DNA from: an uncultured Bacteroidales bacterium
GTDB lineage: Bacteria; Bacteroidota; Bacteroidia; Bacteroidales; Muribaculaceae
Length of the DNA stretch: 64,000 bases
Assembly (NCBI GenBank): GCA_902777835.1
Contig: CACYVC010000023.1
Location: 20,859-84,858 of the forward strand
Direction of reading: 5' to 3'
The translations under genes and the position numbers were made by a program. The first letter of the stretch is position 1. Each line of letters begins with the position of its first letter. Below the pieces are notes generated by a model. That model ran no database searches. It was given only the letters and a program-made list of their open reading frames with translations, and was not told the DNA's origin. Of this stretch, positions 19,510 through 55,132 are shown piece after piece.

Positions 19510-19599
19510 CATTTAGTATTTAATATTTAGTCGCTAAATTAGTAAAAGAATAAACCTTGCGGCATATACTTAAATATAGTGTATGAAATTTGTTTTATT

Positions 19600-19962
19600 A
19601 TGAAAAAATTTTTATTGTTTGCTACCAGCGCACTTTTCTCGCTAACCATGATTACCTCATGTGGAGGTGGTCCTAGCGGTAACCCACAAAAAGATGCAGA
19701 AAATTTCAAAGACCTTTATAATGAGATTGAAGAAATCAAGCTTAAAATAGAGGAAAAGAAACTTGAGGTTCACCAGTATTATGCCGACAATAAAGATTCT
19801 ACAGAATACAACAAATTTGTAAGGGAAGTTGATGAAGTAGCGATTGATGTTCCTGTTGATTTCAAAAAAGAAAACAAGGAGAAATACGACAAAATAAACG
19901 AAGGCAATAAGATTGCCAACGAAAAGATCTCAGGAAAATCAGAATCCAAAAACGAAGAATAA
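19600..19962 (+). CDS. Small lipoprotein, array member 1
   Basis: The 120-residue product has a lipoprotein signal ending in MITSC (Cys 21). Right after the Cys comes GGGPSGNPQKDAENF, the motif (P-S/T-G-D/N-P-x-K-D-A) shared by the array. The remaining 85 residues are charged and helical, with Glu/Lys heptads (EIEEIKLKIEEKKLEV), and the tail is acidic. I start at 19600 (MKKFLLF) because upstream starts only add residues before the signal peptide. No function is known; the six genes are paralogues by signal, motif, size and composition. Confidence 0.8.
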   Translation: MKKFLLFATSALFSLTMITSCGGGPSGNPQKDAENFKDLYNEIEEIKLKIEEKKLEVHQYYADNKDSTEYNKFVREVDEVAIDVPVDFKKENKEKYDKINEGNKIANEKISGKSESKNEE

Positions 19963-19980
19963 AAACAAGACAAAGAAACC

Positions 19981-20006
19981 GCCGAACCGCTTGAAAGGGT
20001 GTAGGC
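19981..20006 (+). promoter_or_regulatory. 26-nt leader hairpin element, copy 1
   Basis: GCCGAACCGC-TTGAAAGGGT-GTAGGC. The outer GCC and GGC can pair, and CGCTT can pair with GGGTG across a GAAA loop. It ends 28 nt before the next start codon. Columns shared by the four copies are CCGAA, CGCT, GG, GTAGG. Confidence 0.7.
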
Positions 20007-20034
20007 AAAACAATTAAAACTCTAAGGCTTAATT

Positions 20035-20409
20035 ATGAAGAAATACTTATTAATTGTAGCAGCGGCGCTGCTGGCATTACCAGCTCTCAACTCCTGCAAC
20101 AAACCTAGCGGAGACCCTGAAAAAGACGCTGAGGCATTTCAGGGTTTAATTGAGGATCAACTTGAAATAGAGCTAGAAGCACAGCAAAAAATTGCTGACC
20201 TTGCCGAATACTATGCCGAGAATGAAGATTATGATGCTTACAAAGATCTTCAAGATGAGTTTTTTGAAATGAGCAAGGACTTGCAAGAGCAATATGAGGA
20301 TCAAATTAAAGACCTCAATAAAGCAATCTCAAAAGTTGAAAAGAAAATCAACAAAAAGAAGAACAAAAACAATGACGAGGATGAAAGCACTAACGAGGAT
20401 GAAGAGTAA
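20035..20409 (+). CDS. Small lipoprotein, array member 2
   Basis: The 124-residue product has a lipoprotein signal ending in LNSC (Cys 21), followed by NKPSGDPEKDAEAF, the array motif in its clearest form. The rest is strongly helical and acidic (EDQLEIELEAQQKIADLAEYYAENEDYD, read with breaks), probably a coiled coil, with a Lys-rich patch (KKINKKKNKN) before an acidic tail. It follows the 26-nt leader element. The segment around LAEYYAENEDYDAYK aligns with EFYAEDGDYKGYEK of the next gene, showing their common origin. Confidence 0.82.
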   Translation: MKKYLLIVAAALLALPALNSCNKPSGDPEKDAEAFQGLIEDQLEIELEAQQKIADLAEYYAENEDYDAYKDLQDEFFEMSKDLQEQYEDQIKDLNKAISKVEKKINKKKNKNNDEDESTNEDEE

Positions 20410-20464
20410 TTATCATTCACCTAACTCTTTATCATCCAAGTGACACATCATCATCAAGAGAAAA

Positions 20465-20490
20465 GCCGAATCGCTCTGAAGGAAGTAGGA
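20465..20490 (+). promoter_or_regulatory. 26-nt leader hairpin element, copy 2
   Basis: GCCGAATCGC-TCTGAAGGAA-GTAGGA, the most diverged copy: the outer pair is reduced to CC/GG. It ends 31 nt before the start codon at 20522. Confidence 0.62.
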
Positions 20491-20521
20491 ACAATTAATA
20501 ACTAATAGAGAAAAATATATT

Positions 20522-20884
20522 ATGAAAAAATACTTAATAATAGCAACGGTTGCAATCATCAGCTTACCATTGATCTCCTGTGACAAACCCACAGGAGACC
20601 CCAAAAAAGACATAGAGAATTTGAAAGGGTTGGCTGAAAAAGCTATGGATACCCAAATTAAACAGATGGAGCAACAACTGGAATTTGCCGAATTCTATGC
20701 CGAAGATGGCGATTATAAAGGATACGAAAAATTTGGGAAGAAATTAGACAAACTTGAAAGCGCAATTCGTAAAGATTTCAAGAAAGAACATAAGGCAGAG
20801 TTTAAAGATGCTGAAAAACGCATAGAAAAGGCCGAAAAGAAATTAAACAAAAGTAGAGACAAAGACGAAGAAAATGAAGAATAG
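20522..20884 (+). CDS. Small lipoprotein, array member 3
   Basis: The 120-residue product has a lipoprotein signal ending in LISC (Cys 20) and then DKPTGDPKKDIENL. The body is helical, with EFYAEDGDYKGYEKFGKKLDKLES matching member 2 in the middle of the protein and a Lys/Glu-rich C-terminus (KRIEKAEKKLNKSRDKDEENEE read in parts). It carries the leader element 31 nt upstream. Members 2 and 3 are the closest pair by sequence among the first three genes. No known family or catalytic residue was seen. Confidence 0.82.
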   Translation: MKKYLIIATVAIISLPLISCDKPTGDPKKDIENLKGLAEKAMDTQIKQMEQQLEFAEFYAEDGDYKGYEKFGKKLDKLESAIRKDFKKEHKAEFKDAEKRIEKAEKKLNKSRDKDEENEE

Positions 20885-21046
20885 CCGATAAACCGCCACC
20901 TGCTTTTTCTCAAGAAACATGACTTTTCATGAGCCCAGAGGAAAGAATATACAACCAACCTCTTAGCACTATTCAAGAAAACAGCAAGTCTGGCGATATC
21001 GACAAAACAAATCAATATTGTTTAACTAAAGAAACAACAAGAAAAA

Positions 21047-21072
21047 GCCGAAACGCTTTAAAGGGAGTAGGC
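21047..21072 (+). promoter_or_regulatory. 26-nt leader hairpin element, copy 3
   Basis: GCCGAAACGC-TTTAAAGGGA-GTAGGC, ending 29 nt before the start codon at 21102. Outer GCC/GGC pairing is complete. No promoter box is seen just upstream, so it probably lies inside a longer transcript. Confidence 0.72.
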
Positions 21073-21101
21073 ACAAATTTTTAAAACCATATTTTTTTAT
21101 T

Positions 21102-21419
21102 ATGAAGATTAAATTTTTATCAATCGCATTTGCACTTTTTATTGCTGTATTGTTCACTGCCTGCAGTAAAGGCCCTAGCGGCGATCCCGCAGCTGACGCT
21201 AAACAATGCGCCACTGAGATGATTGACCTCATGAAGAATGTTGACGTAAGCAACCTCAAGACTGCTGAAGACGCCGAGAAGTGGGAGAAAGAGTTCTCAA
21301 AACAAGTAGAAGATCTCCAGAAGAAATATGAGGACTTCTACAAAGAGAAAGGCGAGGATAAACTGAAAGAGTTCCAAAAAGCTGTTGAGGATCTGGAGAA
21401 TGACCCAGAGATCGGATAA
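21102..21419 (+). CDS. Small lipoprotein, array member 4
   Basis: The 105-residue product has a lipoprotein signal ending in FTAC (Cys 21) and the motif KGPSGDPAADAKQC. The remaining 75 residues (MIDLMKNVDVSNLKTAEDA, then a KYEDFYKEKGEDKLKEF block) form a predicted helical bundle. This part is nearly identical to member 5, at both protein and DNA level, and both genes share the same 3' terminator, so the two arose by a recent tandem duplication. The C-terminal ENDPEIG ends one residue later than its copy. Confidence 0.85.
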   Translation: MKIKFLSIAFALFIAVLFTACSKGPSGDPAADAKQCATEMIDLMKNVDVSNLKTAEDAEKWEKEFSKQVEDLQKKYEDFYKEKGEDKLKEFQKAVEDLENDPEIG

Positions 21420-21470
21420 TTTTTTATCTAAACTTTTCTTTTTGACTATCTCTAGATAATCATTTCACAT

Positions 21471-21530
21471 AGAGTGTTGCATTAGTGTATACGTTAATTT
21501 TTTAAACAGTAAATGCAACACTCTTTCTTT
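21471..21530 (+). terminator. Terminator after array member 4
   Basis: AGAGTGTTGCATTA pairs with TAAATGCAACACTCT over about 14 bp, with a long AT loop and TTCTTT after it. A near copy lies at 22047-22100. Confidence 0.85.
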
Positions 21531-21583
21531 AAAAAATACAATTAACCACAAAAATTTAACAAATAATTTTAGATCATCACATT

Positions 21584-21970
21584 ATGAAATTCAAATTTTT
21601 ATCTATCATCATGGCCGTTGCAGTAGCATTGGCATTCACCTCATGCGACACCAAGAAAGCTAGCGCAAGCGACAAGAGCGAGAGCGCAAGCACAAGCGAG
21701 CAAGTTGAAGAAGAAAAAGTTCTTGAGCCAACTGGCGATGCTTCTGCCGATGCAAAGCAATGCGCCACTGAGATGATTGACCTCATGAAGAATGTTGACG
21801 TAAGCAACCTCAAGACTGCAGAAGACGCCGATAAGTGGGAGAAGGAATTCTCAAATAAAGTAGATGAACTCCAGAAGAAATATGAGGACTTCTACAAAGA
21901 GAAAGGCGAGGATAAACTGAAAGAGTTCCAAAAAGCTGTTGAGGATCTGGAGAATGACCCAGAGATCTGA
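21584..21970 (+). CDS. Small lipoprotein, array member 5
   Basis: The 128-residue product has a lipoprotein signal ending in FTSC (Cys 21). Between the Cys and the array motif (EPTGDASADAKQC) there is a 27-residue linker rich in Ser, Lys and Glu that member 4 lacks. The last 75 residues differ from member 4 at only a few positions. The Ser-rich linker would give the helical domain more reach from the membrane; that is inference. It is not preceded by the 26-nt leader element. Confidence 0.85.
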   Translation: MKFKFLSIIMAVAVALAFTSCDTKKASASDKSESASTSEQVEEEKVLEPTGDASADAKQCATEMIDLMKNVDVSNLKTAEDADKWEKEFSNKVDELQKKYEDFYKEKGEDKLKEFQKAVEDLENDPEI

Positions 21971-22046
21971 AACTCATGGGTGAGACTAAGGAATAATTTA
22001 TTATCTTACTTTTCTTTTTGACTATCATTAGATAATCATTTTATAT

Positions 22047-22100
22047 AGAGTGTTGCATTAGTGTTTACTTTCTAAACAGTTAATGCAACACTCTTTTTTA
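22047..22100 (+). terminator. Terminator after array member 5
   Basis: AGAGTGTTGCATTA pairs with TAATGCAACACTCT, followed by TTTTTTA. It is a duplicated copy of the hairpin at 21471-21530, as is the sequence leading to it. Confidence 0.87.
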
Positions 22101-22146
22101 AAAAACTACGACAACCAATCAACAAACACCTAAGAATCATTACATT

Positions 22147-22596
22147 ATGAAGATTAAATTATTATCAATCCTTATGGCAATCGCCCTGGCGTTGGCTTTC
22201 ACTTCTTGCGATGAAAAGAAGAGTCGCTCACACGACGACAGCAGCAAAAGCGAGAAAGTAGATAAAGAAGATGTGGAAGATGAGGTGGAGTACGAAGTGA
22301 AAGAAATACACCCCACTGGCGACATCAACAAAGACGCAGAGGCGTTAACCCAAAACGTGATTGCTTTTTATAAAAAAATCAACACACAAGAAGATGCACT
22401 AAACATTCAAAAAGAATTTACCGAAATCCAAAAGGAATTTCAAGAGTTCTATAAGAAAAAAGGTCAAGATAAAGATTTCAACACGGCATACTTCAAGATG
22501 ATGCAAGATCCCAAATATGCCAAAGACATAAAAGAGGGCCAACAAAAAATAATGAAATTTGTCAGTGAGACCCTAAAGTCAGTTGATAACAAGTAA
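22147..22596 (+). CDS. Small lipoprotein, array member 6
   Basis: The 149-residue product has a lipoprotein signal ending in FTSC (Cys 21), a charged linker (KKSRSHDDSSKSEKVDKEDVED), the motif HPTGDINKDAEAL and a helical domain (EIQKEFQEFYKKKGQDKDF) that aligns with YEDFYKEKGEDKL of members 4 and 5 but is more diverged. It is the longest and last member of the array, and ends at a strong terminator. No function is known. Confidence 0.83.
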   Translation: MKIKLLSILMAIALALAFTSCDEKKSRSHDDSSKSEKVDKEDVEDEVEYEVKEIHPTGDINKDAEALTQNVIAFYKKINTQEDALNIQKEFTEIQKEFQEFYKKKGQDKDFNTAYFKMMQDPKYAKDIKEGQQKIMKFVSETLKSVDNK

Positions 22597-23210: not shown

Positions 23211-23792
23211 TTATGCGTCAATCTTGATGCCTCCTTGTTTACCGCAGATATAGTTGATGGGGTGATCGATGCCCTTATGCATCAGGCCGTTGATAGTCAG
23301 TGGTTGACCAGGGATGAAACCCTGGCATTTGAAGGTGTCGCCCTCGGTGAGTTTGGCGTTCAGGGATTCTATCACTACATACACGTTGCAGCCACGGTAC
23401 TCAATCGTCACCATGCGCTCTGGATGCCACCGCAGCGTGAGGCGTGTTCCAGGTTGTAGGGTGTCGCTGTCAATGTAGTGAGAGTCGAAGATTTGTGACG
23501 CAGCGGTGTTACTGAGGTTATGGCAGAAGTCATCCCAGTCGCGGCACCCAGCATAGCGTGCGAGCACATTAAGTGTGAAGCGGCGGCTAGTGCTATAGCT
23601 GTCTATATATCCCCACAGGCGCTTGAGAGTGTTGGTGGAGATATGTTCGCTGGTAGCGTCAGTGACGGCAATTGCAAGCATGTTGAAATCGCTGGGTAGC
23701 CGCATGGTGCGTCCTATCTTTTCTTCTACTTGCTTCTTCAGGGCATTAAGAGACTCCTGAACTTCGGCTATTATGATAGTTTCTTTTACCAT
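23211..23792 (-). CDS. Conserved hypothetical protein, possibly DNA-binding
   Basis: The 193-residue soluble protein has an N-terminal helical half with the block ISTNTLKRLWGYIDS followed by RFTLNVLARYAGCRDWDDF. This pair recurs in Bacteroidales proteins of unknown role and looks like a helix-turn-helix: a Ser/Thr-rich turn, then TLKRLWGY as recognition helix. The C-terminal half (about 105-193) is beta-rich (GTRLTLRWHPERMVTIEYRG, then FKCQGFIPGQPL), perhaps a ligand-binding barrel. No cysteine cluster or enzyme motif. I infer a regulator, without a known target. Confidence 0.55.
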   Translation of the reverse strand: MVKETIIIAEVQESLNALKKQVEEKIGRTMRLPSDFNMLAIAVTDATSEHISTNTLKRLWGYIDSYSTSRRFTLNVLARYAGCRDWDDFCHNLSNTAASQIFDSHYIDSDTLQPGTRLTLRWHPERMVTIEYRGCNVYVVIESLNAKLTEGDTFKCQGFIPGQPLTINGLMHKGIDHPINYICGKQGGIKIDA

Positions 23793-24038: not shown

Positions 24039-24935
24039 ATGACAATTGAAGATTATGACTTATTGTCAGGTGCAATCTCTTTTTTTGATATAGATGAGTT
24101 TCAGATGAAAAGAGAGGAAGAGATTCATGCTGGTATGGTGAGTATTGAGAAAGACAGCTTTAAGTTTGAACTTTTTGAAGATGAGGCTATTGTAAAAGAA
24201 GTCTCAGCTCGCATGGAGGATATCATTATCCCTGATTTTGTGGAACATAATGGAAAGAATTACAAAGTTACTTGTATTAATTGTGTCTTTAGTGGCGATG
24301 AATACAAGACTTTAGAGTTGGGGGCAAATGTCAAGTATATAAGACCCTACAGCTTTGCCGAATGCAAAAATCTTGAAAAAGTCAAACTAAATGATTGTCT
24401 TGAAGTTATTGGTGAAAATGCGTTCTATCGCACGCAAATCGATGAAGTGATTATCCCTCAAAGTATAAAACGACTTGACGATAATGCGTTTTTCGATTGC
24501 AGATATTTGACTGTTTACTTGCCAAAAAGATTACAGGCAGGTGCAAACGTCTCAATTGATGGAACAGAACCGCTTGTTCAAAGAGTTTTTAAAAATGTAG
24601 ATGTAGCGTTTATTCACTATTATGATGAATCTGATAACATGGAAATACTGCCTCTTAAGAGAATGCAGGATATATTTGATTCTTGTTCTTATTATGCTTT
24701 TGATACAATTCGTACTTATATGAATTTAAGTAACCAAAACTGGGACTCAAATCAATCTTATTATATGGGGCATCCTGACATGAGAGCTAAACGATATGTA
24801 ATTAGGAAATCTACAAACGAAGAAATTATTGATGACGAAAATGATCCTATAATTGCAACTTATAAATCCATGGAAGAAGTCTTGCGTGATGGTTGGAAAT
24901 TAGATTCAGTTATAAAACACACAAACTATTACTAA
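24039..24935 (+). CDS. BspA-type leucine-rich repeat protein, cytosolic
   Basis: The 298-residue product has no signal peptide. Residues of about 65-170 contain LRR_5 repeats (YKTLELGANVKYIRPYSFAECKNLEKVKLND, read in parts, then AFYRTQIDEVIIPQSIKRLDDNAFFDC), the type seen in BspA surface proteins, but only three or four units are present. The flanks (1-60 and 180-298) are unique; the C-terminal part ends with a DGWKLDSVIK segment. Base composition is more AT-rich than the neighbours, which hints at a different history. It leads a plus-strand run of genes towards the kinases. Confidence 0.7.
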   Translation: MTIEDYDLLSGAISFFDIDEFQMKREEEIHAGMVSIEKDSFKFELFEDEAIVKEVSARMEDIIIPDFVEHNGKNYKVTCINCVFSGDEYKTLELGANVKYIRPYSFAECKNLEKVKLNDCLEVIGENAFYRTQIDEVIIPQSIKRLDDNAFFDCRYLTVYLPKRLQAGANVSIDGTEPLVQRVFKNVDVAFIHYYDESDNMEILPLKRMQDIFDSCSYYAFDTIRTYMNLSNQNWDSNQSYYMGHPDMRAKRYVIRKSTNEEIIDDENDPIIATYKSMEEVLRDGWKLDSVIKHTNYY

Positions 24936-26348: not shown

Positions 26349-27785
26349 ATGCAAAACAGCAACATATATAACTCGTCGAGTTTTTTTGAGACTGAGGAGG
26401 GGGCAATAGATGCCCATTTCACTGATTTCTCGAATATCACGTGCCAGCGGTCGTGGCTGTGCCTCAAGCGTGTGAAGCGTTTTGGGCAGTGGTGGATTGT
26501 CAAGGGCGTGAACCCACAGTTTGAGCCACGAGCAAAGGCACAGAAAATGCTCGACAAGGAGTTTGAACGTTGCATGACGCTATGGCATCCGAGCATTGTG
26601 CGCATGATAGCGCAGCAAGAGGTTCCCACTATGGAAGGGCGCTGCATCATCGAGGAGTGGGTCGATGGCATGAGCCTCGATGCCTTTCTCGCCACAGAAC
26701 CATCAGTGGAAGTGCGGCAGGACATTGCCTCACAGCTTGTTGAGGCGGTGCGTTACTACATGAGCAAGGGTGCGACTCACGGCAATCTCAAGGCAAGCAA
26801 TGTGCTTATTACCCACAATGGCTCAAGGGTGAAAATTATTGATTTTGAACCAGAAAGCACCGACCGTCAAGCCGATTTTGCCGCTCTCGCCACGCTGTTG
26901 CGAGGGTTAAGGCTACCTCGCAAGTTTGGCAAGGTAATAAAGCGTTGCAAGCGAGGGGAATATCCCTCGGCCGAAGTATTGCATCACGATTTTGTTGATG
27001 TGGTAAAGAGCAACCATCGCCGTTGGCTACTGCCCACTTTTGTGGCTGTGGTAGCTATTGGTGCAATTGCTGCCACTTTCCTGTGGGGAAGGCAGCGTCA
27101 GCAGACCGACGAGAAGAAGTTGCCAGCGGGTTATCTGGTCGATAGCATCGCTCCAGCCGGGGCTTCAACGATTTTCTCCACTGTCTCTAATGCCGACATC
27201 TATTGGATGTCGTTCGACTCTATCACTCCTGGCAATATCCCCGATAATATTGCAGTTGACTTGGGACTTAGCGTGAAGTGGAGCAAGATGAATATGGGTG
27301 CCAATCATCCGTCGGTGAACTTTGTGGGAAGCTACTATGCCTGGGGCGACACTACTGACAGGGGTCAGTGGGGCGGACTTGACAAATATTGGCCTGAGAA
27401 CAAGGCGATGCCCACAAAACCTATTAGCGGCACAGACATCGACTATGCACGACGGCGCTGGGGAGGCAAGTGGCGACTACCCACCCAGGAGGAGTGGCGC
27501 GAACTCATTGACCATTGCGACTGGAAATACCGCAACGCGGGCGACGGAGCGGCAGGATATGTGGTGACGGGTCCTAACGGAAATAGCATTTTCCTGCCTT
27601 TTGCAGGCTGGAGCGATGACGGCATCAACATGACGGATGTGGGGCGATTTGGCTACTACTGGACTGCAAAACCAGTCGCCAACGGCAAACGCATGGCGTA
27701 TTATGTGCTTCTCGACGAGGGAAAAATCCTCGCCGACCAAGCCCAGACCGTAGACCGCATGATGGCTATAAGGCCAGTTCAGTAA
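26349..27785 (+). CDS. Membrane pseudokinase with FISUMP sensor-like domain
   Basis: The 478-residue protein has an N-terminal Hanks-type kinase fold, a single membrane helix (about 236-256) and a C-terminal FISUMP domain (about 300-478; DLGLSVKWSKMNMG, WRLPTQEEW, GPNGNSIFLPFAG, GYYWTA). The ATP-site Lys (52, in IVKG), the hinge EEWVDG and the LKASN strand are kept, but the catalytic HRD is HGN (144-146, the Asp replaced by Asn) and DFG is DFE. It has no APE motif. So it is predicted not to transfer phosphate. Expected topology is kinase inside, FISUMP outside. Start 26349 is the first ATG; the longer reading begins with TTG. The active homologue follows. Confidence 0.85.
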   Translation: MQNSNIYNSSSFFETEEGAIDAHFTDFSNITCQRSWLCLKRVKRFGQWWIVKGVNPQFEPRAKAQKMLDKEFERCMTLWHPSIVRMIAQQEVPTMEGRCIIEEWVDGMSLDAFLATEPSVEVRQDIASQLVEAVRYYMSKGATHGNLKASNVLITHNGSRVKIIDFEPESTDRQADFAALATLLRGLRLPRKFGKVIKRCKRGEYPSAEVLHHDFVDVVKSNHRRWLLPTFVAVVAIGAIAATFLWGRQRQQTDEKKLPAGYLVDSIAPAGASTIFSTVSNADIYWMSFDSITPGNIPDNIAVDLGLSVKWSKMNMGANHPSVNFVGSYYAWGDTTDRGQWGGLDKYWPENKAMPTKPISGTDIDYARRRWGGKWRLPTQEEWRELIDHCDWKYRNAGDGAAGYVVTGPNGNSIFLPFAGWSDDGINMTDVGRFGYYWTAKPVANGKRMAYYVLLDEGKILADQAQTVDRMMAIRPVQ

Positions 27786-27866
27786 TTTTCAATGCAGAAT
27801 TCACTATCATAATGCACAATCCTTAATTACTTATATTTTCTGTCACAGCGATTTCAAAATATTGTT

Positions 27867-29369
27867 TTGCTTGAGCATCAGGGGGCGTTTAACCTGCTGG
27901 CTAGAGGAGAGCGTTACGGGCAACAGTGGTTATTGAAAGGATTGAAACCTGAGTTTGCTCAGAGAAAACTCTATATTGACCTGCTTCGAAAGGAGTTTGA
28001 TATTGCTATGCTGCTTCATCACCCAAACATTGTGGGTGTGGTGAGTCTAGAAAGAGTAAAGACTCTTGGCTCACTGTGCATAGTGGAGGAATGGATAGAT
28101 GGCGTTATGTTGCAGCAGTGGCTTGCTGGCAAGCACTCACTTGACGAGAAACTGCATGTTTTGCGACAACTGCTCACCGCTATTAAGCACTGCCACAGCA
28201 TGCAAGTGATTCACCGTGACCTAAAGCCTTCTAATATAATGATAACACGTGAAGGCAATCAGGTGAGAATAATCGACTTCGGTCTTAGCGACACCGACAG
28301 CTACTCATCGCTCAAAGCTGCGGCAGGCACTGTCCATTATGTAGCACCCGAAATTCTCGAAACAGATGGTGAGATTACCGCCCAAGCCGATATCTACTCG
28401 CTGGGCATGATAATGAAGGACATGGATTTGCCAAGGCGTTATAACAATGTGATTGACAAAGCTGTGGCGGTTGACCGTGAGGCTCGGTTCAGCAATATCG
28501 CACAAGTACAGGAAGCGATAGAAAGCGCAAGAAATAGAAACACACAAAAGAAATGGCTTGTTACAGCAATTGTCGCAGTTGTGATGCTATGCTTGGCAGC
28601 ATTTTGGGGTGGTTATCACTTCAGCACCAAGCTTTTCAGAGGGCAGACGGACTCAACAGCCCGCAGTGATTTTGACTCCGAGCAACATCGTGCCGACAGC
28701 CTTGCGCTTGCCTCTGATACTACACTCACAACAATGACGGTTGCCGAGAAGGGATTGACAGTTTTTTACCCCAAGCCAGTTGTTGCCGTGGCAGTGTCAC
28801 CTATTGCTGAAAGCGATGCCGTGGACTTAGGTCTCAGCGTTGACTGGGCACCATGCAACATAGGTGCCGAGCACACTATGGGAAGGCTCATGCCTGGGGC
28901 ATTCCTGCGCACAATGCCCAATCCGTATCAAGTCCTTTTCTATGGAAGAGATTACCCCGATAGCATTTTTGTGAGAAATCAACCAAGTCTTGAAGGCAGT
29001 CGGAATGATGTGGCTATGCGACTGTGGCACGGACGATGGCGCTTGCCGCTAAATAGCGATTTCTACGAGCTTACTGAGCGTTGTCAATGGCAATATTTAG
29101 AGCCGCCAGGCGACCTGCCTGGGTATCTTGTTACAGGTCCCAACGGCAATAGCATCTTCTTGCCGCTGGGGGGATTTCTCTATGACACGCACTATTTCTC
29201 AATAGCTGAGAGAGGTTATTACTGGAGCTCATCATTGTCACCTGCTGGCATAAACGACCCCAAGGAGTGGGCACTTGTTCTTGACCGATATATGGTTCAG
29301 ATAGAGCCTCATAGCCGTCTCAACGGCTTCCTTGTGAGACCAGTCATCGACAAAAGACCGCAAAAATAA
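27867..29369 (+). CDS. Membrane Ser/Thr protein kinase with FISUMP domain
   Basis: The 500-residue protein is a homologue of its neighbour with intact catalytic features: Lys 24 (LLKG), VIHRDLKPSN (His 116 to Asn 123), DFGLSD (137-142) and APE (160-162). A membrane helix lies at about 231-249; a linker of 80 residues leads to a FISUMP domain (DLGLSVDWAPCNIG, WRLPLNSDF, GPNGNSIFLPLGG, GYYWSS). It should phosphorylate Ser or Thr in the cytosol in response to something outside. There is no ATG: the frame is open from 27813 and the first usual start is this TTG. The Gly-rich loop is not clear, so a few upstream residues may be missing. Confidence 0.82.
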   Translation: MLEHQGAFNLLARGERYGQQWLLKGLKPEFAQRKLYIDLLRKEFDIAMLLHHPNIVGVVSLERVKTLGSLCIVEEWIDGVMLQQWLAGKHSLDEKLHVLRQLLTAIKHCHSMQVIHRDLKPSNIMITREGNQVRIIDFGLSDTDSYSSLKAAAGTVHYVAPEILETDGEITAQADIYSLGMIMKDMDLPRRYNNVIDKAVAVDREARFSNIAQVQEAIESARNRNTQKKWLVTAIVAVVMLCLAAFWGGYHFSTKLFRGQTDSTARSDFDSEQHRADSLALASDTTLTTMTVAEKGLTVFYPKPVVAVAVSPIAESDAVDLGLSVDWAPCNIGAEHTMGRLMPGAFLRTMPNPYQVLFYGRDYPDSIFVRNQPSLEGSRNDVAMRLWHGRWRLPLNSDFYELTERCQWQYLEPPGDLPGYLVTGPNGNSIFLPLGGFLYDTHYFSIAERGYYWSSSLSPAGINDPKEWALVLDRYMVQIEPHSRLNGFLVRPVIDKRPQK

Positions 29370-50938: not shown

Positions 50939-53803
50939 TTAACATGATTTTGCCTTTTTAGGCACGGCTTCGCACGAGCCATATTTTGGCAAAATCATGG
51001 CAAGCCGCATTCCGAGGGCGTAGTTGCAGTTGACGGGGTTGCCGTAGTTCCGATTCGACACGCGACAGTTCCTGGCGATGCTGTACCAGCTGCCACCACG
51101 ACGCACGCAGTAAGAGCCCGATGCGGGACCAGTGGGGTTAGTCTGTGCATCTGCACTGTAGTTACCATACCAGTCCTGGCACCACTCCAACATGTTGCCG
51201 CTCATGTCATAGATGCCAAGCTCATTGGGCTGCTTGGTCGCTACAGTCTGTGTGCCATAGCCAGCAGTGCCTTCCGATTGAGAAGGGATGTTGTCCCAGT
51301 ACCACGCCACATCATCAATATTGTTGCTGCCACTGTACTTGTAACCCTGGCTGCGGTTGCCGCCACGGGCAGCATACTCCCACTCAGCCTCGGTGGGCAG
51401 GCGGAAATTCTTTCCCGTCATCTGGTTCAGCTTCGCGATAAACTGCTGACAGTCGTTCCAACTAACTTGCTCCACTGGCCGCTGAAGGTTGCCACTGAAA
51501 TAGCTTGGGTTGGTGCCCATCACAGCCTGCCACAGCTCCTGAGTCACCTCGGTCTGACCTATGCTGAAACTGCTCAATGTCACTTGATGGGTGGGACTTT
51601 CATCACTATAAGCATCGCTGCCCTGCTCGGCGGTAGCACCCATGGTGAACGAGCCGCCCTCAACTGTCACCATCTTGAACGTGACGCCATTAACGGTATA
51701 TTCTGTCTCGTTGTTGAGTTGTGAGTTGTCATTCAACAGTATGTTGTAAACGGCTGTCACATCTGCGGCGGTGACGATGCCGTCGCCAGTCTGGTCGCCA
51801 TAGACAGCATGTGAGTAGTCGTTGTTGAGCAAGATATCATAGAGCGTGGTTATGTCGGCGGCAGTCACAAGGCCGTCACCATTCACGTCGCCAGGCAAAC
51901 CGACTGGAATATAAGTTATGCACACATCGGCAGCGTAATTTAGCTCGTCATTATAAATGCCACCATAACTATTGAAGCCAGAATCATTAACATTCTCAGA
52001 ATTAGCTTTATTCCAAACCACATTGCGACGTCCTCCGTTATACTCGGTGCTATGGAAATAACACCATCCTCTAGAAGTACCAGGCGTAGTGTTTCTTATA
52101 TCAATTATTATGTTCTCACCTTCATATACAAAAGGCTCACTGAAGACAAAATCTATCCACGTGCCTCCTCCGTATGGGCTTAATGTAACATTACAATTTA
52201 CAATGTCATTGCAATCCAACTCGATAACCGATGTATCAAAAACGTCATCAGAATACTTAAATGAGTTAATTGCTGTATTTTTCATTCTTACATTGAAATT
52301 TCCGCCAGCAGCATTTCCACTTTCAAGGTAATATGACAATGAATATATTTTATCACCTTTTTTCATGCCCACCAAATCATCTTTGAGGTAAAGGCACTCA
52401 CTCCCTGTATATCCTCCCATCACCCAATTGCAGATTGGAAGTCTCTCATTCAAAAATGTATTGCTGCCTATGTTAATTGTTCGAGTTGTTGTTTCATTAT
52501 TTGTAACAATGACATTGCAGGTTGCAGTGAGGTTGGTGCCGTCAGTAGTCATTGCTGTAATCACAGCATTTCCAGTGGATTTAGCTGTAACCAAGCCGTT
52601 CTGATCAACGATGGCGATGTTTGTATTACTTGAATTCCAAGTGACTTCTCCGTTTGATACATTGCTAGGCTCAACAGTAGCAACTAAAGTCTCAATATCG
52701 CCAACTTTAAGGTTAAGATTAGATTTATTCAACAAAATGCTGGTTGCAAGAACAACAGAAGGTGTTTGTTTAGAAATGGGCCTAATGGGCAAGCTTGCCA
52801 TAGTGTTTTGAGACCCATACCACACACTAGAGGCTGTGGAAAGTAATATATAAGTCATGCTGCTTGATTCTGGCGTTGATGACCAGTAATAGCACCATTC
52901 TCCAACTTTCATAACAGACCCCATCTTTATACCAGCAGCAGGAAGGAAAATCGTGTTGCCATTATTTCCCCTAACGAGATATCCATTAGTCCCATTTTGG
53001 GTGGTCCATGTCCATTGGCAATTGTTGATGAGCTCTTTTATGTCATTAATGGTTGGTGTGCACCACTCATTGCCCCAAGAACTGGCTACAACATCGTTGC
53101 TGCTCCATTCTACATAACTTCCATAGCCATAGGGTGATGTGGCACCATAGTTGGTTGTGGCCCATAGATTACCAGAAGGCAATTGAAGGTCAACATATTC
53201 ATGACCGTTTATTGAAGGAGTCATTTCTTGGAAATTAGGGAAATCTTTCCACCCATAGGCGTTCTGATAAGCCGACAAGCAACCATGAGGAACATATAGT
53301 GTTGCATTGTTGTAAGCCATATAAGAGAACACGTTGGAGCCTGTGCATGTTGGTGGCGTAATTGCATAGGAATAGACTCTAATCAAGTCAGGACACATCC
53401 AGAAACAACTGGTTCCAATCTGTGTGACACTAGCAGGAATGGATAGCTCTTCCAATTCAAAACATGTGCTGAAAGCTTCCTTCTTTATATATTGTAATGT
53501 CTCAGGAAGTTTTAATGAACTAATAAAACTGTTCTTGAAAGCAGATTCGCCTATACCAACAACTGTGTAATTTGTTCCAGAATAGTAAACAGATTCATTA
53601 ATAACAACATTTCCGCTATAATTTGTTGACCCGTCACTTCCTGCTGATGAGGATGTTTTTGGTGCTACCTCAACAGTTTTGTTGGCCGACGAGACAATAT
53701 TGTAAGCAATATTATTGACTTTGAAGTCATAAGCACTTACCAGCGATGGCAACTGTAAACATAAAAGTAGCAATAAGAACTTTAATAGATTAATACTTTT
53801 CAT
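50939..53803 (-). CDS. Secreted multidomain protein: LRR, FISUMP, Ig-like, dockerin-like, SUMF1-like
   Basis: The 954-residue protein has a signal peptide (about 1-24), BspA-type LRR (30-190), a FISUMP domain (195-350; YVDLQLPSGNLWATTNYG), a Big_2-type Ig domain (352-437; VTWNSSNTNIAIVDQNG), an unknown beta region (440-630), two dockerin-like repeats (GDVNGDGLVTAADIT, then GDQTGDGIVTAADVT; 633-695) and a SUMF1-type domain (704-935; GGSFTMGAT, RLPTEAEWEYAARGG, RRGGSW). A 19-residue tail (end SCEAVPKKAKSC) is encoded by an inverted repeat. Only one Cys of the catalytic pair of true formylglycine enzymes is seen, so the last domain is probably a binding fold. Confidence 0.86.
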   Translation of the reverse strand: MKSINLLKFLLLLLCLQLPSLVSAYDFKVNNIAYNIVSSANKTVEVAPKTSSSAGSDGSTNYSGNVVINESVYYSGTNYTVVGIGESAFKNSFISSLKLPETLQYIKKEAFSTCFELEELSIPASVTQIGTSCFWMCPDLIRVYSYAITPPTCTGSNVFSYMAYNNATLYVPHGCLSAYQNAYGWKDFPNFQEMTPSINGHEYVDLQLPSGNLWATTNYGATSPYGYGSYVEWSSNDVVASSWGNEWCTPTINDIKELINNCQWTWTTQNGTNGYLVRGNNGNTIFLPAAGIKMGSVMKVGEWCYYWSSTPESSSMTYILLSTASSVWYGSQNTMASLPIRPISKQTPSVVLATSILLNKSNLNLKVGDIETLVATVEPSNVSNGEVTWNSSNTNIAIVDQNGLVTAKSTGNAVITAMTTDGTNLTATCNVIVTNNETTTRTINIGSNTFLNERLPICNWVMGGYTGSECLYLKDDLVGMKKGDKIYSLSYYLESGNAAGGNFNVRMKNTAINSFKYSDDVFDTSVIELDCNDIVNCNVTLSPYGGGTWIDFVFSEPFVYEGENIIIDIRNTTPGTSRGWCYFHSTEYNGGRRNVVWNKANSENVNDSGFNSYGGIYNDELNYAADVCITYIPVGLPGDVNGDGLVTAADITTLYDILLNNDYSHAVYGDQTGDGIVTAADVTAVYNILLNDNSQLNNETEYTVNGVTFKMVTVEGGSFTMGATAEQGSDAYSDESPTHQVTLSSFSIGQTEVTQELWQAVMGTNPSYFSGNLQRPVEQVSWNDCQQFIAKLNQMTGKNFRLPTEAEWEYAARGGNRSQGYKYSGSNNIDDVAWYWDNIPSQSEGTAGYGTQTVATKQPNELGIYDMSGNMLEWCQDWYGNYSADAQTNPTGPASGSYCVRRGGSWYSIARNCRVSNRNYGNPVNCNYALGMRLAMILPKYGSCEAVPKKAKSC
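50943..50999. repeat. Inverted repeat overlapping the 3' end of the gene
   Basis: CATGATTTTGCC (50943-50954) and GGCAAAATCATG (50988-50999) are perfect 12-bp arms with GGCACGGCTTCGCACGAGCC between them. It looks like a terminator hairpin, but lies inside the coding region, before the stop. Confidence 0.85.
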
Positions 53804-54247: not shown

Positions 54248-55132
54248 CTATAGAGCGAGGCGAAGACCGACGCCCATGCCGCGTGAGTCGGGGTTACCGG
54301 CGATGCGACTCGACACGCGACAGCGCTTAGCGTCGAAGCCCCAGCTACCACCACGGTCCACGCGGTAAGAGCCCGACACAGGACCAGTGGGGTTGGTCTT
54401 TGGCGCACTGCTGTAACTGCCATACCAATCGCTGCACCACTCACACACGTTGCCGCTCATGTCATAGATGCCAAGCTCATTGGGCTGCTTGGTGGCGACA
54501 GTCTGTGTCCCATAGCCAGTAGTCCCACTCGATTGAGAAGGGATATTGTCCCAGTACCACGCCACATCATCAATATTGTTGCTGCCACTGTACTTGTAGC
54601 CCTGGCTGAGGTTGCCGCCACGGGCAGCATACTCCCACTCAGCCTCGGTGGGCAGGCGGAACTGCTTGCCGGTCATCTGGTTCAGCTTAGAGATAAACTG
54701 CTGGCAGTCGTCCCAACTCACCTTTTCCACTGGACGCTGGAGATTGGTGCCGTAAGAGCCCCCGTTGAAATGGCTTGGATTGCTGCCCATCACCGCTTGC
54801 CACAGTTCCTGAGTCACCTCGGTCTCACCTATTGAGAAAGTACTAAGAGTCACTTGATGAACAGGGGACTCATCATCAGAAGCATCATATCCCTGTTCAG
54901 TGGTCGCGCCCATAGTGAACTTGCCGCCCTCAACTGTCACCATCTTGAACTTCACACCATAGAGATCAAACTCTGTTGTCTGAGCAACATTGCCTAAAAG
55001 ATAGTCATAAAGCGCTGTCACATCGGCTGCTGTGACAATGCCATCACCATTCACATCATAATGATAGGTCTGTGAATAACTTGCCACACTAAATGTGGCT
55101 GCAACAAATAATAAGATAAATAATTTCTTCAT
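54248..55132 (-). CDS. Secreted dockerin-like/SUMF1-like protein
   Basis: The 294-residue protein has a signal peptide (about 1-20), one dockerin-like repeat (YDVNGDGIVTAADVTALY, 24-48) and a SUMF1-type domain (55-294) with GGKFTMGAT, FSIGETEVTQELWQAV, RLPTEAEWEYAARGGN, ELGIYDMSGNVCEWCSD and DRGGSW followed by CRVSSR. It is a close paralogue of the C-terminal third of the gene at 50939; the two share long identical stretches. It stops right after GLRLAL, whereas its copy reads on. Confidence 0.9.
   Translation of the reverse strand: MKKLFILLFVAATFSVASYSQTYHYDVNGDGIVTAADVTALYDYLLGNVAQTTEFDLYGVKFKMVTVEGGKFTMGATTEQGYDASDDESPVHQVTLSTFSIGETEVTQELWQAVMGSNPSHFNGGSYGTNLQRPVEKVSWDDCQQFISKLNQMTGKQFRLPTEAEWEYAARGGNLSQGYKYSGSNNIDDVAWYWDNIPSQSSGTTGYGTQTVATKQPNELGIYDMSGNVCEWCSDWYGSYSSAPKTNPTGPVSGSYRVDRGGSWGFDAKRCRVSSRIAGNPDSRGMGVGLRLAL

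What the first reader, a model, noticed from the sequence alone, without database searches (positions are those of the whole stretch)
26349..29369. Paired membrane pseudokinase and kinase, each with an outside FISUMP domain
Two adjacent homologues have the layout kinase fold, membrane helix, FISUMP. The first has lost the catalytic Asp (HGN for HRD) and DFG (DFE); the second keeps all catalytic residues. This recalls PASTA-kinase sensors of Gram-positives and pseudokinase-kinase pairs in eukaryotes. FISUMP domains occur otherwise on secreted Bacteroidota proteins, two of them in this window, so a kinase could sense the same ligands. I know of no described system of this kind.
Basis: partly seen in the sequence, partly recalled or inferred. 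Interest (0 to 1): 0.8.

Follow-up and report, generated by a model that had tools for sequence, protein, structure and literature searches.

The report
Dead and live receptor kinase pair
A gut bacterium carries two neighbouring genes for membrane sensors that share one build, but only one still looks able to work as a kinase; related species keep both side by side, and a third, unnamed protein gene usually sits close to kinases of this family.

Summary
Gene A (26349-27785) and gene B (27840 or 27867-29369) both read kinase, one membrane helix, FISUMP-like outer domain. A has lost the catalytic Asp (HGN) and a 27-residue activation segment but keeps Lys52, Glu71, Asn151 and the Asp of "DFE"; B is canonical. 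The pair occurs in 16 of 101 genomes held of its genus, with no full-length match in the other genera sampled. A is dead in 13, canonical in 2, cut in 1. Trees fit a duplication before A died. A's kinase half is under purifying selection (dN/dS 0.12-0.27). Of 89 family kinases aligned, only A-lineage sequences are degenerate.

Outside the given coordinates: a 193-residue protein of no named family (23211-23792, minus) lies beside 45 of 60 non-pair kinases of this family. It is the only copy found in this genome, 2.6 kb from A. I infer that A and B form one envelope receptor in which A regulates B, and that this protein is the output. None of this is tested biochemically.

The parts
26349..27785 (+). 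Gene A: membrane pseudokinase with FISUMP-like outer domain, 478 aa
   Evidence: 13 dead/live pairs in the genus (the start of G028's A is masked)
26436..27014 (+). A: kinase-fold domain (Lys52, Glu71, HGN 144-146, Asn151, Asp165; activation segment deleted)
   Evidence: model, residues 21-220 block means 75-94 pLDDT; Foldseek: PknB, Rv3910 kinase-homology domain
27021..27092 (+). A: membrane helix (residues 225-248)
   Evidence: hydropathy; model helix 223-250
27252..27782 (+). A: FISUMP-like outer domain (residues 302-478)
   Evidence: (below cut-offs)
27840..29369 (+). Gene B: membrane Ser/Thr kinase with FISUMP-like outer domain, 509 aa from the CTG at 27840 (500 aa from the TTG at 27867)
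27840..28547 (+). B: kinase domain, canonical K33, E52, HRD 125-127, N132, DFG 146-148, APE 169-171
28545..28625 (+). B: membrane helix (residues 236-262)
28818..29366 (+). B: FISUMP-like outer domain, more diverged than A's in this form
23211..23792 (-). Linked 193-aa protein of no named family (here 'TF193'): helical N-domain with a STxTLKRLWGY signature and a beta-rich C-domain, both by inference from sequence; proposed output partner of the kinases
   Evidence: only copy found in the genome at E<=0.01; next to 45 of 60 non-pair kinases of the family; no Pfam/NCBIfam hit over a cut-off

Best explanation
A and B are the two subunits of one envelope receptor, made from one operon-like gene pair. 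Both span the inner membrane once, kinase fold inside and FISUMP-like domain outside. The outer domains bind a surface or matrix ligand; in the window's form A keeps the better-preserved FISUMP domain and may be the main sensor. Inside, the pseudokinase A does not phosphorylate. It pairs with B and shifts B between off and on, with nucleotide bound in the window's form (Lys, Glu, Asn and the DFG Asp kept). B autophosphorylates and phosphorylates a cytoplasmic partner, most likely TF193, which changes gene expression or another output. Shown here: anatomy, residue losses, conservation of the pair, purifying selection on A, genetic linkage of TF193 with the kinase family. Inferred: topology, physical A-B complex, allosteric control, ligand, TF193 as substrate and any DNA binding by it.
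For: Pair: all 16 genomes of the genus in which B was found have A, whole or partial, directly upstream on the same strand; gaps of -4 to 57 nt in 13 of the 15 pairs measured. A dead in 13 of 16. Of 89 aligned kinases the 13 degenerate ones are 12 A genes and the A remnant of G034. A kinase dN/dS 0.12-0.27 in 8 comparisons. Trees: dead A one clade (SH-aLRT 92), with the active form I A on the same side of a branch (92); A and B branch largely in parallel. G034, the one genome with A on a long contig but no B beside it, has A cut inside the membrane helix. Outer domain of A scores higher than B's on the FISUMP profile in 10 of 10 form I/II pairs. TF193 linkage: 45 of 60 non-pair kinases; 41 of the 42 genus genomes listed with a kinase at E<=1e-60 hold TF193, against 56 of 101 overall; a TF193 relative overlaps the end of a PP2C phosphatase gene in G001 and G099 (the same stretch in both).
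Against: No interaction, phosphorylation or ligand data. In the five form III pairs B, not A, scores slightly higher on the FISUMP profile, so 'A is the sensor' is not general. Form III A has lost the Lys and DFG too, so nucleotide binding cannot be essential. Form I pairs (both canonical) have no TF193 within the stretch held, and G100 shows none in its genome at E<=1e-15; that genome is 88% complete. In the window TF193 is 2.6 kb away, divergent, with two other genes between. 15 of 60 non-pair kinases show no TF193 in the flank held, and 17 of 50 full-length TF193 loci show no family kinase within 1.5 kb. No random-gene control of the linkage was run. G071 shows that a single active kinase-FISUMP gene can do without an A.
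Confidence: 0.42

Rival explanations
1. A is a decoy or brake: it binds the ligand and/or hetero-dimerises with B but only to dampen it, like a dominant-negative receptor. No allosteric activation.
For: Same pair conservation and purifying selection; A's FISUMP domain is better kept in forms I/II, as a decoy would need. Form III A has lost Lys, HRD Asp and DFG, so mainly binding is left.
Against: Form II A keeps the nucleotide-binding set (Lys, Glu, Asn, DFG Asp) in 8 of 8 sequences, more than a decoy needs; this does not decide the sign of the effect.
Confidence: 0.22
2. A is not dead but does another ATP-dependent reaction (such as AMPylation) or a non-canonical phosphotransfer.
For: Lys, Glu, Asn and the DFG Asp kept in form II; bacterial kinase-fold proteins with other chemistry are known (review PMC12599244, passages and section 14 seen).
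Against: Catalytic Asp lost and the activation segment, which positions substrates, deleted in all dead A; form III lacks Lys and DFG as well, so the activity could not be shared.
Confidence: 0.08
3. A is a gene in decay, kept by chance beside B.
For: Catalytic residues lost in steps; G091's A has an internal stop and G034's A is cut.
Against: dN/dS of A's kinase half 0.12-0.27; open reading frame kept in the dead-A genomes, apart from masked bases in G028 and the cut copies; dead A forms one clade.
Confidence: 0.04
4. A and B are two separate receptors for different ligands that happen to share an operon; TF193 is the common output.
For: Outer domains of A and B form separate groups and differ in the YYxWGDT region.
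Against: A should not be able to signal by phosphorylation alone, so it would need another partner; B was not found without A (16 of 16).
Confidence: 0.14
5. The locus is an anti-phage or other conflict system with a kinase trigger.
For: B's kinase domain hits PADLOC kinase models, best PD-T4-6 1.9e-39; TF193's N-domain also heads long NTPases with weak NACHT-like matches.
Against: The PADLOC hits listed cover the kinase domain and are what a Hanks kinase would be expected to give; TF193 and the two genes between it and A have no PADLOC hit at E<=0.01; TF193 has no match in the phage collection; the outer FISUMP-like domain points to surface sensing.
Confidence: 0.05

Closest known systems
PASTA-domain Ser/Thr kinases (PknB of Mycobacterium, Stk1)
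   Different: no PASTA domain listed; NF033483 score 127.2 against a cut-off of 450; no PP2C gene found on its contig; paired with a dead paralogue
MviN (Rv3910) pseudokinase / ActPs3 family
   Same: bacterial membrane pseudokinase with deleted activation loop and lost VAIK/HRD/DFG (review PMC12599244, passages); Foldseek lists 3uqc_D and 3otv_A at ranks 24 and 33 for A
   Different: MviN's kinase fold is part of a peptidoglycan-synthesis protein (a flippase, recalled) and is a PknB substrate, not a tandem copy of its kinase; A keeps Lys, Glu, Asn and DFG Asp in form II
EssB/YukC pseudokinases of type VII secretion
   Same: membrane pseudokinase with an attenuated activation loop (review PMC12599244, passages)
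   Different: part of a secretion machine; no sister kinase mentioned in the passages seen; outer parts not compared here
HER3/HER2 receptor pair of animals (recalled, not tested)
   Same: two membrane receptors of one family, one with the catalytic Asp changed to Asn and ligand binding, the other active
   Different: unrelated outer domains and origin; tyrosine kinases; no evidence here of an asymmetric dimer
Stand-alone kinases of the same family in the same order (TF193-linked)
   Same: same kinase domain family; TF193 next door in 45 of 60 non-pair kinases
   Different: other outer parts (BspA-type LRR_5 in 2 of the 8 scanned, one just under the cut-off; no named outer domain in the other 6); single gene; all 57 in the census keep the catalytic residues

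Membership tests
Hanks-type (eukaryotic-like) Ser/Thr kinase: B | Pkinase match over cut-off and K/E/HRD/N/DFG/APE | tested here: met
   125.8 bits, cut-off 31.7; all motifs kept in 16 of 16 B
Hanks-type (eukaryotic-like) Ser/Thr kinase: B | phosphorylates Ser/Thr | not testable with these tools
   needs an assay
Pseudokinase: A | kinase fold with one or more of VAIK Lys, HRD Asp, DFG Asp lost | tested here: met
   HRD Asp lost; Lys and DFG Asp kept
Pseudokinase: A | no phosphotransfer | not testable with these tools
   needs an assay
PASTA kinase (PknB/Stk1) | PASTA repeats in the outer part | tested here: not met
   no PASTA domain in the Pfam scans of A and B up to E 1 nor among the NCBIfam rows shown (all 16 for A, 25 of 26 for B); NF033483 127.2 of 450 bits, kinase part only
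PASTA kinase (PknB/Stk1) | linked PP2C phosphatase gene | tested here: not met
   PF13672 matches of this genome are on contigs C2, C4 and C44, not on C23; only this PP2C model was searched
FISUMP domain family (PF09603/TIGR02145) | score over the curated cut-off | tested here: not met
   A 16.3 of 33.9 and 20.0 of 41.65 bits; B has no PF09603 row, and no TIGR02145 among the 25 of 26 rows shown
FISUMP domain family (PF09603/TIGR02145) | homology to FISUMP-like domains of this genome and a relative | tested here: met
   129.9 and 90.7 bits with a profile of 15 such domains, 12 of this genome and 3 of G067; those 15 were themselves found with the A/B profile
ActPs3 / MviN pseudokinases | Lys, HRD and DFG motifs all lost and activation loop deleted | tested here: not met
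   loop deleted but Lys and DFG Asp kept in the window's form; form III A comes closer
Known anti-phage kinases (PADLOC) | full-length match and system partners | tested here: inconclusive
   kinase-domain hits in the rows shown; three neighbouring genes without hits

The most novel reading that the evidence does not exclude
This is a bacterial receptor kinase:pseudokinase heteromer comparable in logic to HER2:HER3, with ligand sensing and catalysis divided between two duplicated subunits, signalling through a so far unnamed protein family (TF193) that serves membrane Ser/Thr kinases throughout Bacteroidales. Living relatives preserve the stages: active-active, nucleotide-binding dead-active, fully degenerate dead-active.
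Probability: 0.33. Interest if true: 0.85.

Novelty: new variant of a known kind. Interest (0 to 1): 0.63.

Why it matters
Kinase-pseudokinase regulation is studied mostly in eukaryotes; the 2025 review of bacterial pseudokinases calls the bacterial ones largely unexplored (PMC12599244, abstract seen), and its main text has no occurrence of 'bacteroid' or 'active kinase'. Here a type with both partners apparently active and two stages of catalytic loss exist in one genus, so the question of what a pseudokinase gains when it dies beside its partner becomes directly testable. The linked 193-aa family gives a concrete candidate output for membrane Ser/Thr kinases of this order.

Tried and rejected
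Literature search with a slash in a term: error; a different wording was searched (0 papers). A first script for the outer-domain tree failed on a wrong pattern and was rerun. PF09603 search of the own genome found nothing at E<=0.001 although FISUMP-like proteins are present, so the Pfam model seems too strict for this branch. PDB sequence search with the outer-domain alignment found nothing at E<=10; with TF193, best E 0.034, read as chance. Foldseek and VIA-align with the full models were filled by the kinase domain, so the fold of the outer domain stays untested. The model of A is poor outside the kinase domain (mean pLDDT 59.3). Promoter and terminator scan: 7 and 4 sites against shuffle means 3.9 and 3.4, not informative. 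Plasmids: 596 records match, none with a place covering 80% of B. A search with the single gene of G071 in 9 genomes gave no other full-length match. Considered and rejected: A as a pseudogene (dN/dS); a classical kinase-PP2C operon (that one is on contig C2 of this genome). The AU tests do not reject all B, or A plus B, as one clade (p 0.27 and 0.175; groups named after the tree was seen); this allows but does not prove one duplication. In the kinase tree form I B falls apart from the other B with weak support. Rows dropped before the census and kinase tree: G028's A (masked start), L005 and L147 (short or partial kinases) and duplicates.
Full report
WHAT IS THERE. The window is part of a 2.89 Mb assembly of 52 contigs. 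Named relatives with the same genes are MAGs deposited as Muribaculaceae, Prevotellaceae or Bacteroidales, three of the eight titled from the forestomach of buffalo or goat. Gene A runs 26349-27785 and gene B ends at 29369. They share 30% identity over 455 columns. Both match Pkinase over its cut-off (45.4 and 125.8 bits, cut-off 31.7). Each has one hydrophobic segment just after the kinase domain and a FISUMP-like C-terminal domain. That label rests on homology, not on curated cut-offs, which the window's two proteins miss. A profile of 15 other FISUMP-like domains (12 of this genome, 3 of one relative) gives 129.9 bits for A and 90.7 for B; those 15 had been collected with an A/B outer-domain profile. 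Across relatives 9 of 13 A and 3 of 16 B match Pfam Lcl_C at E<=0.01.

WHAT A HAS LOST AND KEPT. By alignment A has HGN for HRD. From the Asp of DFG to the Asp of the F helix (name recalled) it is 11 residues in A and 38 in B, so 27 residues including APE are gone. A keeps Lys52, Glu71, Asn151 and Asp165. B keeps K33, E52, HRD, N132, DFG and APE.

RELATIVES. A profile of A was run against the 101 genomes held of the genus. B occurs in 16 (G000, G001, G042, G093, G066, G098, G099, G030, G015, G089, G088, G077, G028, G100, G091, G040). In all 16 A lies directly upstream on the same strand, whole or partial. In the 15 pairs measured, with inferred B starts, the gap is -4 to 57 nt in 13 and 180 nt in G028; the figure printed for G091 (855) counts from the interrupted first part of A and is not a gap. 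In G040 only the last 129 residues of A lie on the contig. G050 has A cut by a contig end. G034 has an A remnant cut inside the membrane helix with no B beside it. A match spanning kinase and outer domain at E<=1e-60 was seen in no other genus among 397 genomes of the family and 393 of the order; only the best three candidates per genome were scored there.

THREE FORMS. Form I (G100, G091; G040's A kinase is not on the contig): A canonical with HCD, DFG, APE, so both partners look active. G091's A is interrupted by a stop. Form II (8 genomes, the window included): HGN, activation segment deleted, Lys/Glu/Asn/Asp kept. Form III (G015, G089, G088, G077, G028, and the G034 remnant): activation segment deleted, HRD Asp and DFG lost, and Lys changed to Thr in the five sequences in the census (G015, G089, G088, G077, G034; the start of G028's A is masked and it was not in the census). 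In the census of 89 kinase-family sequences the 13 degenerate ones are all of the A lineage. All 57 stand-alone kinases, 16 B, 2 form I A and the single gene of G071 keep Lys, catalytic Asp and DFG Asp. The stand-alone set was gathered with strict profile hits, so more diverged dead members could have been missed.

ORDER OF EVENTS. Kinase tree (quick method, SH-aLRT only): dead A one clade (92), with form I A on the same side of a branch (92); B of forms II/III one clade (93); form I B elsewhere, weakly. AU tests do not reject all B as one clade (p 0.27) or A plus B as one clade (p 0.175). Outer-domain tree: A including form I one side of a branch (84), B including form I likewise (67), both together apart from 15 other domains (90). 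This fits one duplication of a kinase-FISUMP gene before A died, but support is moderate. G071's single active kinase-FISUMP gene groups with the other FISUMP domains and looks like an independent fusion; its branch is long.

A IS NOT DECAYING. Nei-Gojobori dN/dS of A's kinase half is 0.12-0.27 in 8 species comparisons, against 0.09-0.22 for B's. In three of the eight comparisons B's outer domain changes at least twice as fast in amino acids as A's: dN 0.328 against 0.129 (G000/G066), 0.272 against 0.071 (G066/G093), 0.135 against 0.057 (G098/G099). In four it is about equal (G000 with G001, G042 and G093, and G001/G093) and in G015/G089 lower (0.009 against 0.034).

DIVISION OF LABOUR, PARTLY. 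On the FISUMP profile A's outer domain beats B's in 10 of 15 pairs (all 10 of forms I/II, by about 18-39 bits); in the 5 form III pairs B is ahead by about 3-9 bits. The pairs are related, so the Wilcoxon p of 0.008 overstates the case. The reading that A senses and B catalyses is a hypothesis for forms I/II only.

THE MISSING THIRD GENE. A 193-aa protein at 23211-23792 (minus), here TF193, belongs to no named family that I could find: no Pfam or NCBIfam hit over a cut-off and no convincing PDB hit for its 17-member alignment. One copy was found in this genome, 2.6 kb from A. The same family lies near the pairs in forms II and III (for G093): convergent and directly behind B in form III, in most form II genomes a few kb upstream and divergent, in G030 downstream. 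Among 60 distinct non-pair kinases of the family, collected by kinase hits, 45 have it as neighbour at ORF-to-ORF distances of -191 to 180 nt, in all four orientations (24 upstream same strand, 9 downstream same strand, 8 upstream opposite, 4 downstream opposite). Six of the 45 loci had also supplied sequences to the TF193 profile. The other 15 had 0.1-1.5 kb of flank on each side. Starting from TF193, looked at 59 loci: of the 50 with a TF193-sized protein, 33 have a family kinase within the 1.5 kb flank; nine more (L167-L175) are form II genomes, G050 among them, whose kinase domains lie beyond the flank; 8 have none in view; the other 9 loci are the long proteins below, without a kinase. 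Of the 42 genus genomes listed with a kinase at E<=1e-60 (a sample of the family; how many of the 101 it drew is not printed), 41 hold TF193, against 56 of 101 overall; the exception is G100, form I. In G001 and G099 the same stretch carries a distant TF193 relative overlapping the end of a PP2C phosphatase gene, without a family kinase in view. TF193's N-domain also heads longer proteins in other genomes of the order; two of nine were scanned and gave weak NACHT-like matches under the cut-offs. No random-gene control of the linkage was run. I infer that TF193 works with Ser/Thr phosphorylation and is the likely output; its name here implies no shown DNA binding.

MECHANISM. Best reading: A and B are subunits of one envelope receptor, A regulates B, B passes the signal to TF193 or another cytoplasmic target (confidence 0.42). 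Rivals: A as decoy or brake, A and B as separate receptors, A with other chemistry, decay, defence; see the fields.

KNOWN OR NEW. Searches for FISUMP with kinase, 'fibrobacter succinogenes major' with kinase, 'bacterial pseudokinase' with serine threonine kinase and 'eukaryotic-like serine threonine kinase' with Bacteroides returned 0 papers. Searches with pseudokinase plus Bacteroides or FISUMP (20 of 51 listed), MviN and PknB (12 of 19), prokaryotic, bacterial, evolution (15 of 39) and Bacteroidetes (10 of 42) listed none that, by title and start of abstract, describes such a pair. In the review PMC12599244 I read the abstract, section 14 and passages: families ActPs1-3, GLW, CP1, DYD, DLHK, and EssB/YukC and SidJ; no occurrence of 'bacteroid' or 'active kinase'. 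Only open-licence papers were searched. I class it as a new variant of a known kind: Hanks receptor kinase plus paralogous pseudokinase in bacteria.

Noticed in passing
window 27840 (B start); L050, L052, L053, L054: B has no ATG at its start in form II except in G066: the codon aligned with ATG of other forms is TTG in G093, G098, G099, G030 and CTG in G000, G001, G042. Weak starts might keep B scarcer than A.
   Followed up: partly
L050 (G093), A and B genes: Mosaic history: A kinase half of G093 is close to G000 (dS 0.215) while its A outer domain and B kinase half are close to G066 (dS 0.40 and 0.23). Suggests recombination inside the pair.
   Followed up: no
L227:857-2124, L228:1447-2714: A distant TF193 relative (E 1.5e-27) overlaps the end of a PP2C phosphatase gene on the same strand in G001 and G099 (the same protein sequences in both), with no family kinase in the stretch.
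   Followed up: partly
L217-L225: The N-domain of TF193 heads proteins with open frames of 533-895 aa in other genomes of the order; two scanned, weak NACHT/STAND-like matches.
   Followed up: partly
G000:C2, locus L230:497-3473: A separate kinase (313 aa), PP2C (437 aa) and a protein with an FHA-like start (my reading, no family scan) lie head to tail on another contig.
   Followed up: no
L067, L166: Stand-alone kinases of the family carry BspA-type LRR_5 repeats as outer part (117.0 bits in L067; 27.2 bits in L166, just under the cut-off of 27.7); an LRR_5 gene (24039-24935) also stands between TF193 and the pair in the window.
   Followed up: partly
window 50939-53803 (-) and 54248-55132 (-): Secreted-looking proteins: the first combines FISUMP-like, dockerin-like (NGDGxVTAAD) and sulfatase-modifying-factor-like stretches, the second the last two; dockerin and sulfatase-modifying labels are from recall of motifs, not scanned.
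   Followed up: no
window 19579-22596 (+): Six small lipoprotein-like genes in a row that look related (my reading).
   Followed up: no
L061, L062: Two of the three form I pairs lie behind the same divergent 307-aa gene, which looks like a CorA-type transporter (recalled); the third is cut by its contig end.
   Followed up: no
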